The position numbers and the translations under genes are program-made. Source: Planctomycetota bacterium (GTDB taxonomy: Bacteria > Planctomycetota > Phycisphaerae > Phycisphaerales > SM1A02). Taken from it: a stretch of 51,800 bases of DNA. Positions 4,533-10,357 of the stretch are shown piece by piece. Position 1 is the first letter of the stretch, and each line of letters starts with the position of its first letter. The DNA is taken from contig JADFSH010000010.1 in the NCBI GenBank assembly GCA_022560875.1, positions 1-51,800 of the forward strand. The letters are read 5' to 3'. The notes below the pieces were generated by a model. The model ran no database searches. It was not told where the DNA came from and saw only the letters and a program-made list of their open reading frames with translations.

Positions 4533-5057
4533 ATGGCCTGGAATGTCAAACCGTCCGCGACGACGCAGATCCAGAAGCGCGATGCGCCCTATCTCACCGA
4601 GAAGATGGCCCGGCGATTCACCCGTAAAATCCTGCCCCGTTATGAAACGAAGATGGGTGCGCTGATGCCGATCCTGAACGAAGTGCAGCATGAATATGGC
4701 TACATTCCCTATCAGTCGATGATCGAGATCGCAACCTTCCTCGAGATACACCCCGGTGATGTGCTCGACATGGTTTCCTTCTACGAGGAGTATCACACCG
4801 AGCCGGTCGGCAAGTACGTCATCGGCGTGTGCCAGTCCATCGCCTGCGAGGTGTGCGGGCATCAGGCGATACTCGACCATCTGCGGGGCAAGCTCGGCAT
4901 CGAGCCGCACGAGACCACCGATGACGGCAGGTTTACCCTCCTGACCATGGAATGCCTCGGGGCCTGCGAAGGCGCGCCTTGCGCCTTGATCAATGACGAC
5001 CGCCATGACAATCTCTCGATCGATCAAATCGACCGACTTATCGACGACTTGGAGTAA
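4533..5057 (+). CDS. nuoE: NADH-quinone oxidoreductase subunit E (24 kDa type, 2Fe-2S)
   Basis: Part of the NADH-dehydrogenase module of complex I, holding the N1a [2Fe-2S] cluster. At 174 residues it has the expected length. The four ligand cysteines are Cys100 and Cys105 (CQSIAC) and Cys141 and Cys145 (CLGAC), the normal Cx4C plus Cx3C pattern. The helical N-terminus carries YGYIPYQSM and the DMVSFYEEYHTEPVGKY stretch typical of NuoE. A purine-rich GAGGAAT sits just before the ATG. It lies 34 bases after nuoD and belongs to the same operon. Confidence 0.95.
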   Translation: MAWNVKPSATTQIQKRDAPYLTEKMARRFTRKILPRYETKMGALMPILNEVQHEYGYIPYQSMIEIATFLEIHPGDVLDMVSFYEEYHTEPVGKYVIGVCQSIACEVCGHQAILDHLRGKLGIEPHETTDDGRFTLLTMECLGACEGAPCALINDDRHDNLSIDQIDRLIDDLE

Positions 5058-5102
5058 TCGTATCGCGTGCGGCCCCGGCCGCATTGTTCGTTGTACCTGA
5101 CT

Positions 5103-5342
5103 ATGGAAGAACCATTGAACAAACGCAGCTTGATGAGATCAGTGGGTTTGTTTTGCCATCACATCATGGATGCGGTTAGGTCTGATTCTGCAGCACGGAA
5201 GAAACATGTCGTCAACAAGAAAGTCGAGGAGATCGAAAAGGAAAACCTGATCCTCCGTCGCACCACGATCGATGAAATCGAATTCAAAAAAAGGGAACCT
5301 TCCCCCTCTCCGTATTCCCACGATCACAATTCTGAAAGCTGA
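5103..5342 (+). CDS. Small conserved-looking protein between nuoE and nuoF
   Basis: A 79-residue reading frame fills the gap between nuoE and nuoF on the same strand. The sequence starts MEEPLNKRSLMRS, has a GLFCHHIMDAV segment, then a charged helical part (KKVEEIEKENLILRR, likely coiled coil) and a polar end rich in Ser, Pro and His. It has no signal peptide and no domain I recognise. The in-operon position, 45 bases after nuoE and 36 before nuoF, argues for a real gene. Base composition is somewhat more AT-rich than the nuo genes. An upstream ATG at 5067 is possible but would begin in the nuoE trailer. Confidence 0.5.
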   Translation: MEEPLNKRSLMRSVGLFCHHIMDAVRSDSAARKKHVVNKKVEEIEKENLILRRTTIDEIEFKKREPSPSPYSHDHNSES

Positions 5343-5378
5343 TCACAGAACGCAGCCAGTTCACTCCCGAGATACCCC

Positions 5379-6728
5379 ATGCCCGTCACCGATCCCGTAC
5401 TCACCAAGCGTATTCCCACTTGGCCCTGGGGCGATCCCAAGGATCGTCATATCGTCACCTACGACGAGTTCACGAAAACCGGCGGCTATCAGGCCCTCGA
5501 AAAGGCCCTCGACATGACACCCGCCGAGGTGGTGGATGTGGTCAAGGACTCCCAACTTCGAGGCCGGGGAGGCGCGGGTTTTCCCTGTGGTCTGAAGTGG
5601 ACGTTTCTTCCCGAAGTAGACGGCGGGCGTCGATACCTTGCCGTCAACTGTGATGAGGCCGAGCCGGGGACGTTCAAGGATCGCCTGCTCATCGACTTCG
5701 ATCCGCACATTATCCTCGAAGGCATTGCCATAACCTGCTACGCCTGTCATCTTGACACTGCGTATTTCTTCATTCGGGGCGAATACCGCCATCAGGCTCG
5801 AGTCGTCGAGAATGCCATCACCGAAGCGTACGACAAGGGCATCTTCGGCAAGCAGGGACTCATGTGCGGTAAGAGCAAGTACGCCGTGGAGTGCTATCTG
5901 CATCGCAGTGCGGGTGCGTACATCTGTGGCGAGGAAACGGGGTTGCTGGAGGCGATCGAGGGAAAGCGGGCATGGCCCCGCATCAAGCCGCCGTTTCCCG
6001 CGGTCAAGGGATTGTTTGGTCGTCCAACCATCGTCAACAACGTGGAGACGCTCGCCGCTGTCGGCCCAATTCTCACCAATGGAGTTCAGTGGTGGACGAA
6101 GATGGGCTGCGAATCATCGATCGGCGCCCCCCCGAGTTACGGTCCCAAGCTCATGGGGGTTTCGGGTCATGTCACCACCCCCGGCGTCTTTGAATGCGAT
6201 CTCGGCATCCCCCTGAGCAAACTCGTCAATGATTTTGCGGGCGGGATGCGCGGCGGGAAGAAATTCAAGGGAGCCATCGCGGGCGGTGTGTCGATGGGCA
6301 TCCTCGGCCCCGATCAATTCGATGCCGAGATGGACTTTGACATCGGGCGCAAGTACGACGTGCTCGGACTGGGAACCGCTTGCCCGACAATCTTTGATGA
6401 GGACACCGACATGGTCGCGGTGGCCCGGAATATCGCGCGATTTTTCAAGAACGAATCGTGCGGCCAGTGCACTCCCTGTCGAGAGGGCACGCAGTGGATA
6501 TACATGCTGCTTTGTCGCATTGAGAAAGGCTACGCCACCAGCAAGGATCTCGATCTGCTGTTGGAGATTTCCGGTTCGATGGGCATCATGCCCGGCACCA
6601 CCATCTGTGGCCTCGCCGACGGCAATAACTGGGCGGTGCGGACCATCGTGAACAAGTATCGCGACGAGTTCGAGGCGAGGATCCGTCCGAGCAGCGTGCC
6701 GGTGGGGATGACGGTTGGAGCAAGTTGA
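5379..6728 (+). CDS. nuoF: NADH-quinone oxidoreductase subunit F (51 kDa type, FMN, 4Fe-4S)
   Basis: Binds NADH and FMN and starts electron flow into complex I. The 449 residues contain GRGGAGFP at 62-69 and VNCDEAEPGT at 89-98 (FMN and NADH site), GAYICGEETGLLEAIEGKR around 179-197, the SLBB-type middle region, and the N3 [4Fe-4S] ligands Cys361, Cys364 and Cys367 (CGQCTPC) with Cys410 (TTICGLAD). Downstream one expects nuoG; instead the gene is followed two bases later by a lipoprotein gene and then by repeated copies of its own 3' end (7504-7542, 8351-8554, 10142-10267). This copy is the only full-length one and appears intact. Confidence 0.96.
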   Translation: MPVTDPVLTKRIPTWPWGDPKDRHIVTYDEFTKTGGYQALEKALDMTPAEVVDVVKDSQLRGRGGAGFPCGLKWTFLPEVDGGRRYLAVNCDEAEPGTFKDRLLIDFDPHIILEGIAITCYACHLDTAYFFIRGEYRHQARVVENAITEAYDKGIFGKQGLMCGKSKYAVECYLHRSAGAYICGEETGLLEAIEGKRAWPRIKPPFPAVKGLFGRPTIVNNVETLAAVGPILTNGVQWWTKMGCESSIGAPPSYGPKLMGVSGHVTTPGVFECDLGIPLSKLVNDFAGGMRGGKKFKGAIAGGVSMGILGPDQFDAEMDFDIGRKYDVLGLGTACPTIFDEDTDMVAVARNIARFFKNESCGQCTPCREGTQWIYMLLCRIEKGYATSKDLDLLLEISGSMGIMPGTTICGLADGNNWAVRTIVNKYRDEFEARIRPSSVPVGMTVGAS

Positions 6729-6730
6729 TC

Positions 6731-7461
6731 ATGCGATTGTTTCTGGCACTTTTCGGATTCGTGCTCTTTTGCGGCTGCAGCGGCGAAGTTGAGCATGACG
6801 CTTCGGAGGCCGAGGCGATTGTCCAGACGGCGGATCCCGCTCGCTTTGAAGTATTCCAGAGACTCCCGGAAAAATTGAGTGATGCCGTTGTTTTTCGCAA
6901 GGAGCGGCATGATCGTCTCGTACTCGACGAAATGTTCAGCGGTGTGATGACCGAAAAGGAGTTTCTTAAAGTCTTTCTCGACTATCAATCGCAAATCGAG
7001 CGAGTCATCGACGCCACGCTGACCATGACGTCACCCATACCGCCGGCACCGGATTTTGACGATGACGACACACAGAACGATCGCCATTTAGACACCGTGC
7101 CCGGGAGATTGCTGAACAACAGTCGACTGCTTCTGGCAGATGCCATCCGTTGCTGGGAAATCGGAAAATACAAGAGCTGTGGCCGGCGTTATGCGGCGTC
7201 AATGCGTATCGACCGTGCATGCTTGATGATGTGGACACAATGACTCAATTTCGCGGCGCTCAGGTGTGCATTCCCACAATCCTGGAACTGGACCTGCGTC
7301 TCGCCGACGGCCTGGCCGAGCGGCTTACCGAACCTGCTCGAGGTGAGTTGCTGAATCTGATTCTGAAAATGGATACGAGCCGCGTACCGGGGTGGGACGA
7401 TTCATCGCCCGTCGCCGAAGCAAAGCGTCGGGCCATTCGCTATCTCGAGGATGGCCGCTAG
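6731..7461 (+). pseudogene. Frameshifted lipoprotein gene A, paralogue of the 7545-8276 gene
   Basis: Starts at ATG 6731, two bases after the nuoF stop, with a lipoprotein signal (FGFVLFCGCSG). The first frame ends at a TGA at 7241-7243 after RIDRAC and a short out-of-frame tail. The homologous sequence continues in another frame from about 7220 (DTMTQFRGAQ, then ILELDLRLADGLAERL) to the TAG ending at 7461. Both halves align with the intact paralogue next door (FNNSRLLVTDALRCW and IIELELRVNDGLGDKL there). The whole span is 731 bases against 732 in the paralogue, so a single lost base near 7220-7240 is the likely lesion, unless it is a sequencing error. Function unknown. Confidence 0.75.
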
Positions 7462-7464
7462 ACA

Positions 7465-7508
7465 TTCGCAGGCCGCAACGTCAGTATCGCACGAGTCCGG
7501 CCTGCGAA
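7465..7508. repeat. 10-bp perfect inverted repeat between lipoprotein A and the nuoF-tail copy
   Basis: TTCGCAGGCC at 7465-7474 pairs with GGCCTGCGAA at 7499-7508 across a 24-base loop. It begins four bases after the lipoprotein A stop and its right arm overlaps the start of the short nuoF-tail copy. It could act as a transcription terminator without a T-run, or mark a recombination join. Confidence 0.55.
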
Positions 7509-7542
7509 CGTGGCGATGGGAGTGACGGTTGGAGCAAGTTGA
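7504..7542 (+). repeat. nuoF 3'-end copy 2 (39 bases, last 12 codons and stop)
   Basis: Read in the nuoF frame this gives ANVAMGVTVGAS then TGA, against SSVPVGMTVGAS then TGA at the end of nuoF. The matching run continues past the stop into TCATGCG, the start of the following lipoprotein gene, just as nuoF runs into lipoprotein A. It is therefore a duplicate of the nuoF/lipoprotein junction. Confidence 0.75.
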
Positions 7543-7544
7543 TC

Positions 7545-8276
7545 ATGCGTGTTGTTTCTCTTCTTCTCTGCGTCATCTGCCTGACCGCATGTGCAGAAGT
7601 GGAGAGCAAGGACGACCCGATCATCGTTCCTGATCTATCGAGCATCGATTCCCCCTTCGATGCTTTCGTGCGGCTGCCGAAGCAGCTGCATGATGGCCTG
7701 AAGATGCGCAAGAGCCATGTCGATCACGTTGCCATCGAGGACATCTACGCGACGCAGTTCGAGTCCGAGGAGTTGGTCGAGCTGCTCGTTCGCTGGCAGC
7801 CGTACATCATCAACCTCATCGAAGCTTCGCATCGTATCGAGCCGCCCTTGCCTGCCGAACCCAAATACACCGACGCCGAGCTATCCGAAGGCGCGTACCT
7901 GAACGGCATCACCGCCCGCCTGTTTAACAATAGTCGTCTGCTCGTGACCGACGCCCTTCGTTGCTGGTCGATCGGCGATTACGACGGTTGCGGGGCACGC
8001 TTTGATGCAGTCCTCCGCATGGCGATCTGCTCGTATCGCAGTGAGGAGACGATGCACCAACACAACGGCACGCTGTTGCTGCAAACCGTCATTATCGAAC
8101 TCGAACTGCGCGTCAACGACGGCCTGGGCGACAAGCTCGCCCCCGATCGCGTCCGTGAGATTCTCGCCACGATACGCGATCTTCAGGAGGCTCGCCTCCA
8201 GGCCGGCATTCGGTCGAACACCGGCGATCGGATCCTGGGTCATCTCATCGAGGTCTTCAGTCAAGAAGGTGAATGA
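7545..8276 (+). CDS. Lipoprotein B of unknown function, intact paralogue of the frameshifted gene
   Basis: A 243-residue protein beginning MRVVSLLLCVICLTACAE, a signal with lipobox LTAC. The mature part is alpha-helical in character, with RLPKQLHDGLKMRK, an acidic middle, the block NNSRLLVTDALRCW about 140 residues in, and ELELRVNDGLGDKL. These blocks are shared with lipoprotein A upstream, where about a third of residues match by eye. ATG 7545 was chosen over the longer upstream frame because it places the signal and mirrors the lipoprotein A start. The stop overlaps an ATG (ATGA at 8273-8276) that opens the frame of the next nuoF-tail copy. Function is unknown; a membrane-anchored role is inferred from the lipobox. 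Confidence 0.7.
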   Translation: MRVVSLLLCVICLTACAEVESKDDPIIVPDLSSIDSPFDAFVRLPKQLHDGLKMRKSHVDHVAIEDIYATQFESEELVELLVRWQPYIINLIEASHRIEPPLPAEPKYTDAELSEGAYLNGITARLFNNSRLLVTDALRCWSIGDYDGCGARFDAVLRMAICSYRSEETMHQHNGTLLLQTVIIELELRVNDGLGDKLAPDRVREILATIRDLQEARLQAGIRSNTGDRILGHLIEVFSQEGE

Positions 8277-8350
8277 CCAGCATGCCGGGCTTTTTTGCGC
8301 AACTCCAATCTTCCGAGAGTCGGATTCACACCCGGAAGTTCCGGCGGCCG

Positions 8351-8554
8351 TGCGGGATCGAGAAGGGTGATGCCACCAGCAAGGATCTCGATTTGCTGCT
8401 TGAGATTTTCGGTTCGATGGGCATCATGCTCGGCAACACCATCTGCGGCCTCGCCGACGGCAATAACTGGGCCGTGCGAACCATCGTGAATAAGTATCGC
8501 GAAGAGTTCGAGGCAAGGGTGAGGCCCGTGAGCGTGGCTCTTGCGGCTTTGTAG
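8351..8554 (+). pseudogene. nuoF 3'-end copy 3, open frame but lacking the catalytic domain
   Basis: Matches NuoF residues 379-440: about 54 of 62 residues are identical by eye, starting CGIEKGDATSKDL and running through TICGLADGNNW to RVRPVSV, then ending VALAAL and TAG. Only one of the four N3 cluster cysteines is present and the FMN/NADH domains are missing, so it cannot work as NuoF. The frame has no stops and can be read from ATG 8273, which overlaps the lipoprotein B stop, as a 93-residue protein. It shares YREEFEARVRPVSVA with copy 4 but not with nuoF itself. Confidence 0.8.
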
Positions 8555-8567
8555 TCTATGGTATGAT
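8541..8567 (+). promoter_or_regulatory. Possible promoter of the AT-rich three-gene module
   Basis: TATGAT at 8562-8567 matches five of six -10 positions. A TTGCGG at 8541-8546 lies 15 bases upstream, short for a -35 element. It sits between the end of nuoF-tail copy 3 and the first module gene at 8592, so the leader would be short. Confidence 0.35.
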
Positions 8568-8591
8568 TCGGACGATCTTCTTTGGGTTGTA

Positions 8592-9125
8592 ATGATGTTT
8601 GAAATTGCCAAATTATCTGGGACGCCTGAACGCGAGATTCCTCTAGGCACAATGCGAGGAACTCAAATTCCAAATGCTGTGGCCATTGCCGAAGTGCCTG
8701 ACTATGCCTCTAGGCGTTACGACAGGATGCGCATGTCACATCAATGGGAACAACGTAAACATCCATGTGGTATCTACAACTGTTTCGGTCATGTCTTTGC
8801 CACTCGTCGAACAAGTATTTACGATGATGAAAACATGTGGATTAGACTGATTCAGGCAGAAGATGGATATCGTCTTATCGGTCCAAGTGATCAAGCCGTT
8901 GTAGGCGATATAGCTTTGTATTTGCACAAGGCGGATCTGAGTTTTCTTCATGTAGGACGAATTGTTGTGGCCGACTATACTGGAGATCTACCATTGATCA
9001 AAGTGCTGAGTAAATGGAATGATACTGCAGGTGAGGACATACACGTGATACATGATGTACCATATCCAAGCATGGGATTAGAATGTGAAATTGAGATCTG
9101 GACTGATCGAAGGGGCGACACATGA
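8592..9125 (+). CDS. Uncharacterised protein, possible papain-like (NlpC/P60-like) fold; first gene of AT-rich module
   Basis: 177 residues from ATG 8592 (a second ATG follows at once at 8595). No signal peptide. The order of features recalls small papain-fold proteins: a Cys in GIYNCFGHVFATRR about 60 residues in, VVGDIALYLHKAD, then SFLHVGRIVVADY with a candidate His, and a closing KVLSKWNDTAGEDIHVIHDVPY segment. That reading is inference; no catalytic assignment is certain. Codon use is clearly more AT-rich than nuoF or ybeY, pointing to recent arrival. Its stop overlaps the next start by four bases (ATGA at 9122-9125), so translation is probably coupled. Confidence 0.55.
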   Translation: MMFEIAKLSGTPEREIPLGTMRGTQIPNAVAIAEVPDYASRRYDRMRMSHQWEQRKHPCGIYNCFGHVFATRRTSIYDDENMWIRLIQAEDGYRLIGPSDQAVVGDIALYLHKADLSFLHVGRIVVADYTGDLPLIKVLSKWNDTAGEDIHVIHDVPYPSMGLECEIEIWTDRRGDT

Positions 9126-9637
9126 CAAGCATACCCAAAATAATTGAGGCCTTTTGCCTTGACCGATTTGAAGACCAAGTTGCCGCCGCTTCAACACCTG
9201 CTGTTTTACGCAAGCTCATACGGAATACTGATGAATTCGCAGTTTTGCAGGAACAGATCTTTTCGGGCGCCATCAACTCAACGCATATTAAAGCATCCGT
9301 GGCGGAGTTGTTGAAGTCGTTCGAAAAAGGCAAGCCATTTCGATTTCAATCGGCTTTAGCGGCAATCGCCATAGCAATGGAGAACTCATTCTCGGAATAC
9401 AGCGATGAATACCTTTCGTCGCTCTCGAAGGTTCGTGTCGCTGAACTCTCTATTGCAACTAGAGTAGCAGAGCTTGCGATTTCGTTGAAATCACATAGCA
9501 CTTGGACTCCGCCACACGAGATAAAAGGTGTGTTAGTAGGGTTGACATCTGGACCAAAGACAATCCAATTTGTGGAACTTCAGGAACAAGAGTCGATGAG
9601 TTGTGATCTGACCGAGGTGGTATATGCCCAGGCTTGA
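9122..9637 (+). CDS. Uncharacterised helical protein, second gene of AT-rich module
   Basis: 171 residues with no family I recognise. The first 130 residues look all-alpha (LRKLIRNTDEFAVLQEQIF, then VAELLKSFEKGK, SALAAIAIAMENSF, LSKVRVAELSIATRVAELAISL). The last 40 residues may form a small beta region (GVLVGLTSGPKTIQFVEL). No signal peptide or membrane segment. It overlaps the previous gene by four bases and the next by fourteen, so the three are almost certainly one operon and may form a complex. Base use is AT-rich like its partners. Confidence 0.6.
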   Translation: MTSIPKIIEAFCLDRFEDQVAAASTPAVLRKLIRNTDEFAVLQEQIFSGAINSTHIKASVAELLKSFEKGKPFRFQSALAAIAIAMENSFSEYSDEYLSSLSKVRVAELSIATRVAELAISLKSHSTWTPPHEIKGVLVGLTSGPKTIQFVELQEQESMSCDLTEVVYAQA

Positions 9638-10079
9638 ATTTTTCATCGTCGCCCGATCGTTTGCGGCGGACAAGTTTACAAATAGACTTAGTCTCTTTGA
9701 CATCTTTGAAACAGTCCAACCCATACGATTCCCTGCGGTAATTCCGAGAATGGTGGCAATGAGTGCGTGGCACTATGGAAATGCAGAGGAGAGGCAAGAG
9801 CAATTTCAGGCGACAGTGATTATAAAGATGCCAGGGCCTGAAGAAGATGTCATCATCAATACCAACTTTGAAAACCCGGGAATACTTCACCATACTGTCG
9901 CAGGAGTTTCAAATACTATTGTGTCACGGCCTGGAACCATTGAAATTGAACTCAAACTGAATGGTGAGCATCAAGCTTTTCACAGGATTCAGGTTGTAGA
10001 GGCAAATGACAAGCAGATAGATGACGGATCTTTACTTTACCCTGGGTCGAATGAACAACAAGAGGCGAAGGCCGAATAG
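9624..10079 (+). CDS. Uncharacterised protein resembling DUF6941-type domains, third gene of AT-rich module
   Basis: 151 residues starting MPRLEFFIVARSFAADKF. The pattern of an N-terminal strand, then NRLSLFDIFETVQ and FPAVIPRM, followed by beta strands (ATVIIKMPG, GTIEIELKLNGE), resembles small bacterial proteins of the DUF6941 type, which have a KLSLIGIFD-like motif in the same place. The match is from memory of the motif and is tentative. The C-terminus is polar (SNEQQEAKAE). It begins inside the end of the previous gene. A 60-base AT-rich spacer separates it from nuoF-tail copy 4. Confidence 0.6.
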   Translation: MPRLEFFIVARSFAADKFTNRLSLFDIFETVQPIRFPAVIPRMVAMSAWHYGNAEERQEQFQATVIIKMPGPEEDVIINTNFENPGILHHTVAGVSNTIVSRPGTIEIELKLNGEHQAFHRIQVVEANDKQIDDGSLLYPGSNEQQEAKAE

Positions 10080-10141
10080 TTACACACTCGTAATCTGCAA
10101 TAAATAATCGCGATACACGAATAGAGCCAACAAGTGCTAGG

Positions 10142-10267
10142 ATCTGCGGCCTCGCCGACGGCAACAACTGGGCCGTGCGTACCAACGTGAACAAGTATCG
10201 CGAAGAGTTCGAGGCAAGAGTCAGGCCCGTGAGCGTGGCAGTGAGTGTGACGGTGGGAGCGGGTTGA
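10142..10267 (+). pseudogene. nuoF 3'-end copy 4 (last 41 codons and stop)
   Basis: In frame it reads ICGLADGNNWAVRTNVNKYR, then EEFEARVRPVSVAVSVTVGAG and TGA, matching NuoF residues 409-449 with the stop in the same place. It keeps the VTVGA ending that copy 3 has lost, and shares REEF and RVRPVSVA with copy 3 rather than with nuoF. It begins abruptly after AT-rich spacer DNA and marks the right edge of the accessory locus before ybeY. Confidence 0.8.
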
Positions 10268-10357
10268 GGAACCGGTAGTGAATGGCCGATATTCATCCTT
10301 GTTTCGGGCATGAAAATGCGGTATTTTGATGCCTCCACCGCGATTTTTTGATTCGAC

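What the first reader, a model, noticed from the sequence alone, without database searches (positions are those of the whole stretch)
8592..10079. Three-gene AT-rich operon of unknown function inside the nuoF-tail locus
Seen: three overlapping genes (4- and 14-base overlaps), visibly AT-richer than both flanks, none in a family I can assign with confidence. The first has a Cys, His and GDIALY arrangement recalling papain-fold enzymes, the third a DUF6941-like motif. Tight overlap suggests a complex, for example an effector with partners, or a defence module. This is the strongest candidate here for a new system; function is inference.
Basis: partly seen in the sequence, partly recalled or inferred. 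Interest (0 to 1): 0.8.

Follow-up and report, generated by a model that had tools for sequence, protein, structure and literature searches.

The report
Mobile three-gene papain-like hydrolase operon
Three overlapping genes inserted behind nuoF form a small operon that recurs, in the same order, in scattered members of at least six bacterial phyla; its first gene is predicted to be a papain-like cysteine hydrolase, and because the same enzyme domain also tips an Rhs toxin the operon is probably an undescribed conflict (toxin or defence) module, although no activity has been shown.

Summary
Three genes (8592-9125, 9122-9637, 9624-10079) overlap by 4 and 14 bases. Their G+C is 45.3% against 56.5% for the window, the lowest stretch of that length in it. 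Gene 3 is DUF6941. Gene 1 matches no family alone, but its relatives hit CHAP and NlpC/P60, Cys63 and His119 are invariant, and its model resembles NlpC/P60 and CHAP enzymes. Gene 2 is a helical bundle with a disordered tail and no family. A motif scan found the same ordered operon in Gemmatimonadota, deltaproteobacteria, Acidobacteriota, Dechloromonas, a spirochaete and another planctomycete. The three proteins diverge in step. DUF6941 alone is common and usually stands without genes 1 and 2. The operon is rare, sits beside a serine recombinase in Dechloromonas, and its gene-1 domain is the C-terminal tip of an Rhs protein. Two loci have lost gene 1 but kept genes 2 and 3. Best reading: a mobile conflict module whose cytoplasmic papain-like effector is held by its two partners. 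The module is well supported; the function is inferred (about 0.5). No confident PADLOC match; no paper in the searched library names DUF6941.

The parts
8592..9125 (+). Gene 1 (P1, 176-177 aa): predicted papain-like (NlpC/P60-CHAP type) cysteine hydrolase, motif YNCFGHVFATRRT (Cys63), GD..LY, LHVG (His119), GED.H; no evident signal peptide
   Evidence: C63, H119, E147 invariant in 10 homologues; members hit CHAP 4.9e-6; model pLDDT 82; papain-like matches
9122..9637 (+). Gene 2 (P2, 171 aa): eight-helix bundle (1-128) with disordered C-terminal tail ending in Ala; no family
   Evidence: (pLDDT 74; 129-171 below 50); operon partner in other genomes
9624..10079 (+). Gene 3 (P3, 151 aa): DUF6941 protein
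   Evidence: PF22091, E 4.2e-8, 34 bits, above gathering score
5379..6728 (+). nuoF, intact gene whose 3' end is repeated downstream
8344..8540 (+). Left nuoF-tail copy (90% identical to the tail of nuoF over 159 bases); lacks the last codons
10142..10270 (+). Right nuoF-tail copy (94% identical to the left copy over 98 bases), runs to the stop codon

Best explanation
The operon is a small, horizontally moving conflict module. Gene 1 makes a cytoplasmic papain-like (NlpC/P60-CHAP type) cysteine hydrolase, the effector. Its most likely chemistry is hydrolysis or transfer on a peptide, amide or similar bond of a cellular target, through Cys63 and His119. Gene 2, a helical bundle with a flexible tail, and gene 3, a DUF6941 protein that looks mostly beta from its sequence, bind and restrain or present the enzyme until a trigger (infection, stress or loss of the element) frees it. 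Shown: the operon, its recurrence, the conserved Cys and His, a papain-like fold model, a mobile-element setting in some genomes, and the use of the same domain as an Rhs tip. Inferred: activity, target, complex formation, which partner inhibits, and the trigger.
For: Same gene order in nine loci, one of them cut by the contig end (window; L105, L108, L109, L110, L113, L115, L136, L140), from at least five phyla, six with the damaged acidobacterial copies; several joints are 1- to 4-base overlaps. Pairwise distances of the three proteins correlate (Mantel r 0.85-0.91, p 0.0002-0.005). Tyr61-Asn62-Cys63, His119 and Glu147 are invariant in 10 gene-1 homologues; members hit CHAP (4.9e-6) and NlpC/P60 (0.0098); nearly all leading VIA matches are papain-like hydrolases or toxins, Z up to 6.2. 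The gene-1 domain follows an RHS core (TIGR03696, 3.7e-17) as a C-terminal tip in L135. In Dechloromonas the operon sits beside a large serine recombinase (5.5e-29); in L104 gene 1-2 relatives sit with ParA/ParB-like genes and an integrase-like gene. Gene 1 is broken in L107 and L134 while genes 2 and 3 stay open, as expected if gene 1 is the costly part. It is patchy: at most two operon-type loci per 247-343 sampled genomes of a phylum. No member has an evident signal peptide or membrane segment.
Against: No biochemical or phenotypic data. Structural matches are weak (best Foldseek E 0.1, none papain-like at the top; VIA Z under 8). The third catalytic residue is unresolved. Most neighbourhoods are ordinary metabolic genes; only L108 has a TIR-NB-ARC gene nearby. 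Two broken gene-1 copies could partly be draft-assembly artefacts. Toxin and regulatory or processing roles cannot be told apart by sequence.
Confidence: 0.5

Rival explanations
1. Gene 1 is an interbacterial effector exported by a delivery system encoded elsewhere; genes 2 and 3 are its immunity protein and an adaptor or chaperone.
For: A gene-1-type domain is the tip of an Rhs protein (L135); leading structural matches include the T6SS effector Tae3 (4hz9, Z 5.4) and a papain-like toxin of a toxin/immunity pair (9l5u, Z 4.7). Tox-NlpC/P60 tips of Rhs-type toxins are documented (PMC3482391).
Against: The operon's gene 1 has no N-terminal trafficking domain or evident signal peptide; no secretion genes were seen in the neighbourhoods examined; partners lack signal peptides, unlike periplasmic immunity proteins.
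Confidence: 0.2
2. A regulatory or processing enzyme set: gene 1 trims or modifies a specific cellular protein for the host's own benefit, with genes 2 and 3 as substrate adaptors.
For: Ordinary metabolic neighbours in several loci; DUF6941 is a common standalone protein in the window's phylum (150 of 294 genomes).
Against: Patchy distribution and mobile-element contexts; the Rhs tip architecture; loss of gene 1 with retention of the partners.
Confidence: 0.22
3. The papain-like fold is a scaffold without enzyme activity, and the module is a binding or sensing complex.
For: The third catalytic residue is not clear; inactive peptidase domains are known in polymorphic toxin systems (PMC3482391).
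Against: Cys63 and His119 are invariant across homologues as little as 26% identical to the window protein.
Confidence: 0.08

Closest known systems
NlpC/P60 and CHAP (papain-like) cysteine hydrolases, e.g. Trichomonas NlpC1/NlpC2, MepS
   Same: Cys at a helix start, later His in a beta strand, GD.(x)Y motif between; fold model matches (Z 6.2 and below); several members hit CHAP or NlpC/P60
   Different: Window protein itself hits neither profile; no evident signal peptide; distinct YNC.G.V.A.RRT motif and SKW...GE..H tail; company of two fixed partner genes
Papain-like toxins of polymorphic systems (Tox-NlpC/P60; Tox-PL1 with an NC-H-DxQ signature; PMC3482391)
   Same: Asn-Cys ... His pattern, and one gene-1-type domain sits C-terminal to an RHS core
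   Different: Standalone gene without trafficking domain, in a fixed operon with DUF6941; no Pfam match to a papain-fold toxin model
Cpe1-Cpi1 papain-like protease toxin and immunity protein (PMC12136450)
   Same: Papain-like fold, cytoplasmic site of action (proposed here for gene 1); weak structural match to a papain-like toxin of a toxin/immunity pair (9l5u, Z 4.7)
   Different: Cpe1 is associated with T6SS or CDI delivery and has one immunity partner; this module has two partners and no delivery genes
DUF6941 (PF22091) standalone proteins
   Same: Gene 3 is a member
   Different: The DUF6941 loci examined elsewhere have no gene 1 or 2 relative nearby

Membership tests
DUF6941 (PF22091) | Profile match above Pfam gathering score | tested here: met
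   34 bits against cut-off 27, E 4.2e-8; operon homologues L115, L136, L134, L113 also pass
NlpC/P60-CHAP papain-like superfamily | Profile match to PF00877 or PF05257 | tested here: inconclusive
   Window protein: no match. Homologues: CHAP in 3 of 10 (best 4.9e-6), NlpC/P60 in 1 (0.0098)
NlpC/P60-CHAP papain-like superfamily | Conserved nucleophile Cys followed by His in the right order | tested here: met
   C63 and H119 invariant in 10 homologues
NlpC/P60-CHAP papain-like superfamily | Papain-like alpha+beta fold | tested here: inconclusive
   Model pLDDT 82, pTM 0.78; VIA list led by NlpC/P60, CHAP and amidases, Z at most 6.2; Foldseek E 0.1 at best
NlpC/P60-CHAP papain-like superfamily | Third catalytic polar residue and hydrolase activity | not testable with these tools
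   E147 invariant and H150 nearly so; geometry and activity not measured
T6SS amidase effector-immunity pairs (Tae-Tai) | Immunity partner with signal peptide, delivery by T6SS | tested here: not met
   Partners have no evident signal peptide or membrane segment (hydropathy only); no T6SS genes seen near the operons examined
Polymorphic (Rhs) toxins | Toxin domain C-terminal to RHS or other trafficking region | tested here: not met
   Window gene 1 is standalone; a homologous domain in L135 does follow an RHS core
Known anti-phage defence systems (PADLOC 2.0.0) | Confident match to a system protein | tested here: not met
   Only isolated weak hits: NsnC 0.006 for one gene-2 member, PglX 0.0058 for one gene-1 member
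Toxin-antitoxin module | One product toxic alone and neutralised by a co-encoded partner | not tested
   Needs expression; loss of gene 1 with genes 2 and 3 kept in two loci is compatible

The most novel reading that the evidence does not exclude
An undescribed abortive-infection system of the type sensor-adaptor-effector: the DUF6941 protein and the helical adaptor sense infection or a phage product and release a cytoplasmic papain-like hydrolase that disables the cell. It would be spread by small mobile elements over many phyla.
Probability: 0.22. Interest if true: 0.75.

Novelty: new variant of a known kind. Interest (0 to 1): 0.55.

Why it matters
It gives the widespread DUF6941 family, for which no paper was found in the searched library, a specific setting with a likely enzyme and a third partner. 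It also supplies a compact system that can be tested with a few plasmids in a laboratory strain. If gene 1 is an intracellular papain-like effector, it adds a protease- or amidase-type killer to bacterial conflict systems, where most known effectors act on nucleic acids, nucleotides or membranes (general knowledge).

Tried and rejected
Single-sequence searches for gene 1 in 61 relatives and 392 genomes of the phylum gave only itself plus one chance local match (L101/L102: no papain motif, unrelated neighbours). Pattern scans of viral contigs with genes 1 and 2 and with alignment A1, and tblastn in plasmids (genes 1-3 and gene-1 relatives) and phages (gene 1 and one relative), found nothing; a looser motif in viral contigs gave one chance hit. 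A genome scan with gene 3 found no relative. Considered and set aside: phage lysin (no signal peptide or phage context; PHROG hits at chance level); housekeeping enzyme of the nuo cluster (a relative has nuoF-ybeY-corC without it); known defence system (PADLOC hits near 0.006 and isolated). PDB profile searches for genes 2 and 3 gave chance matches only. Structural matches of gene 2 (ENTH/VHS/HEAT-like, Z at most 7.8) are what any helical bundle gives and are not read as function. L133 (CHAP-like end of a larger protein) is a remote domain relative and not the operon.

Full report
Check of the observation. The stretch has 45.3% G+C; the mean for windows of that length is 56.5% (sd 3.1) and no other is lower. 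GC3 is 36-47%, against 57-73% in nuoF, the lipoprotein genes, ybeY and the corC-like gene. The operon lies between two diverged copies of the nuoF 3' end (8344-8540 and 10142-10270), about 94% identical to each other over 98 bases. Such copies were found in no other genome of the 41 searched with NuoF and not in the 15 relatives' nuoF regions compared in detail. A relative with the plain order nuoF-ybeY-corC (L075) suggests the whole 3.7-kb stretch was gained.

What the proteins are. Gene 3 is DUF6941. Genes 1 and 2 match nothing alone in Pfam, NCBIfam, PHROGs or PADLOC beyond weak isolated hits. Gene 1 carries YNCFGHVFATRRT, GDIALY and LHVG, the spacing of a papain-like enzyme. I turned the first motif into a degenerate DNA pattern and scanned 84,980 species genomes. 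Twelve loci came back, and nearly all encode true relatives or remnants. The alignment of ten proteins keeps Tyr61, Asn62, Cys63, Gly65, Arg71-Arg72-Thr73, Asp90, Gly104-Asp105, His119 and Glu147 in every row, at 26-43% identity to the window protein. Members hit CHAP (best 4.9e-6) and NlpC/P60. The AlphaFold model (pLDDT 82, pTM 0.78) is placed by VIA-align among NlpC/P60, CHAP and amidase structures, with Z 6.2 at most. That Z is modest and the direct Foldseek list is uninformative, so the fold rests on motif, profile and model together. Gene 2 is modelled as eight helices plus a disordered tail. In most of its relatives that tail ends in alanine, which may be a degradation or docking signal (inference). 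None of the proteins has an evident signal peptide or membrane segment by hydropathy.

The operon travels as a unit. Relatives of genes 2 and 3 follow gene 1 in L105 (Gemmatimonadaceae), L108 (cut by the contig end within gene 3), L109 and L110 (Deltaproteobacteria, Desulfobacca), L115 (Planctomycetota), L113 (Dechloromonas), L136 (the Spirochaetaceae genome of L111) and L140 (the deltaproteobacterium of L106), and, with gene 1 damaged, in L107 (Acidobacteriaceae) and L134 (same phylum). L104 (Prevotellaceae) has genes 1 and 2, and its contig then ends. Reading frames commonly join by ATGA. Distances between the seven complete sets compared correlate across the three genes (Mantel r 0.85, 0.85 and 0.91), so they have been inherited together. 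The set is rare: in samples of 343 genomes of the window's phylum, 247 of the Acidobacteriaceae MAG's phylum, 299 of the Dechloromonas phylum and 247 of the Desulfobacca phylum, at most two loci each carry the operon or a remnant. By contrast DUF6941 occurs in 150 of 294 genomes of the window's phylum, and none of the DUF6941 loci examined there has a gene-1 or gene-2 relative. The window's own genome has a second, separate DUF6941 gene.

Clues to function. (a) In L135 a gene-1-type domain follows an RHS core domain (3.7e-17), the place of the toxin tip in Rhs proteins. The next gene, on the same strand, has a signal-like start, as an immunity gene for a periplasmic toxin would. (b) In Dechloromonas the operon sits beside a large serine recombinase and a Rep-like gene. 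(c) In L107 and L134 gene 1 is broken, while genes 2 and 3 stay open. That is the pattern left by a costly effector and harmless partners, but both genomes are drafts. (d) L108 has a TIR-NB-ARC-TPR gene about 2.5 kb upstream, but the other neighbourhoods are mostly metabolic. These clues favour a conflict module with a cytoplasmic papain-like effector restrained by two partners. They do not say whether the trigger is phage, stress or loss of the element, nor what bond is cut.

Comparison with what is known. NlpC/P60 toxins, Tox-PL1 with its NC-H-DxQ signature (PMC3482391) and the protease toxin Cpe1 with its immunity protein (PMC12136450) are the nearest functional parallels. Gene 1 may work like them; it is not filed in any of these groups, because the window protein passes none of the profiles tested and lacks their delivery parts. 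No paper in the library mentions DUF6941, and searches for papain-like toxin-antitoxin or NlpC defence systems found no such operon. The module is therefore rated a new variant of a known kind (papain-like effector with partners).

Limits. No activity, binding or phenotype was tested. Gene 3's fold was not predicted. The third catalytic residue is open. Collection scans see only motif matches, so the distribution is a lower bound.

Noticed in passing
window 6506-10274: Partial copies of the nuoF 3' end at 7496-7549, 8344-8540 and 10142-10270 divide the nuoF-ybeY gap into segments, like displaced gene ends left by successive insertions into the 3' end of nuoF, but with no recombinase gene in the gap.
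   Followed up: partly
window 6725-7243 and 7542-8276: Two related lipoprotein-like genes in tandem; the repeat unit (about 814 bases) includes the last bases of nuoF.
   Followed up: partly
L067 (G013) 4989-10079: A family member has quite different cargo in the same nuoF-ybeY gap, so the gap may be an insertion hotspot in this family.
   Followed up: partly
L135 5524-6504 (-) and 4769-5509 (-): RHS core protein with a gene-1-type papain-like tip, followed by a gene with a signal-like start that may encode its immunity protein.
   Followed up: partly
gene 2 homologues (alignment A2): The disordered C-terminal tail ends in Ala in most members (YAQA, NWAA, MKAA, KAAA, MEVA), reminiscent of ssrA-type degradation tails.
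   Followed up: no
L109 and L110: Between these close relatives gene 1 is less conserved (67%) than genes 2 and 3 (86% and 83%), so gene 1 may be the fast-evolving part.
   Followed up: no
L108 76-2298: TIR-NB-ARC-TPR gene about 2.5 kb upstream of the operon in a deltaproteobacterial MAG.
   Followed up: no
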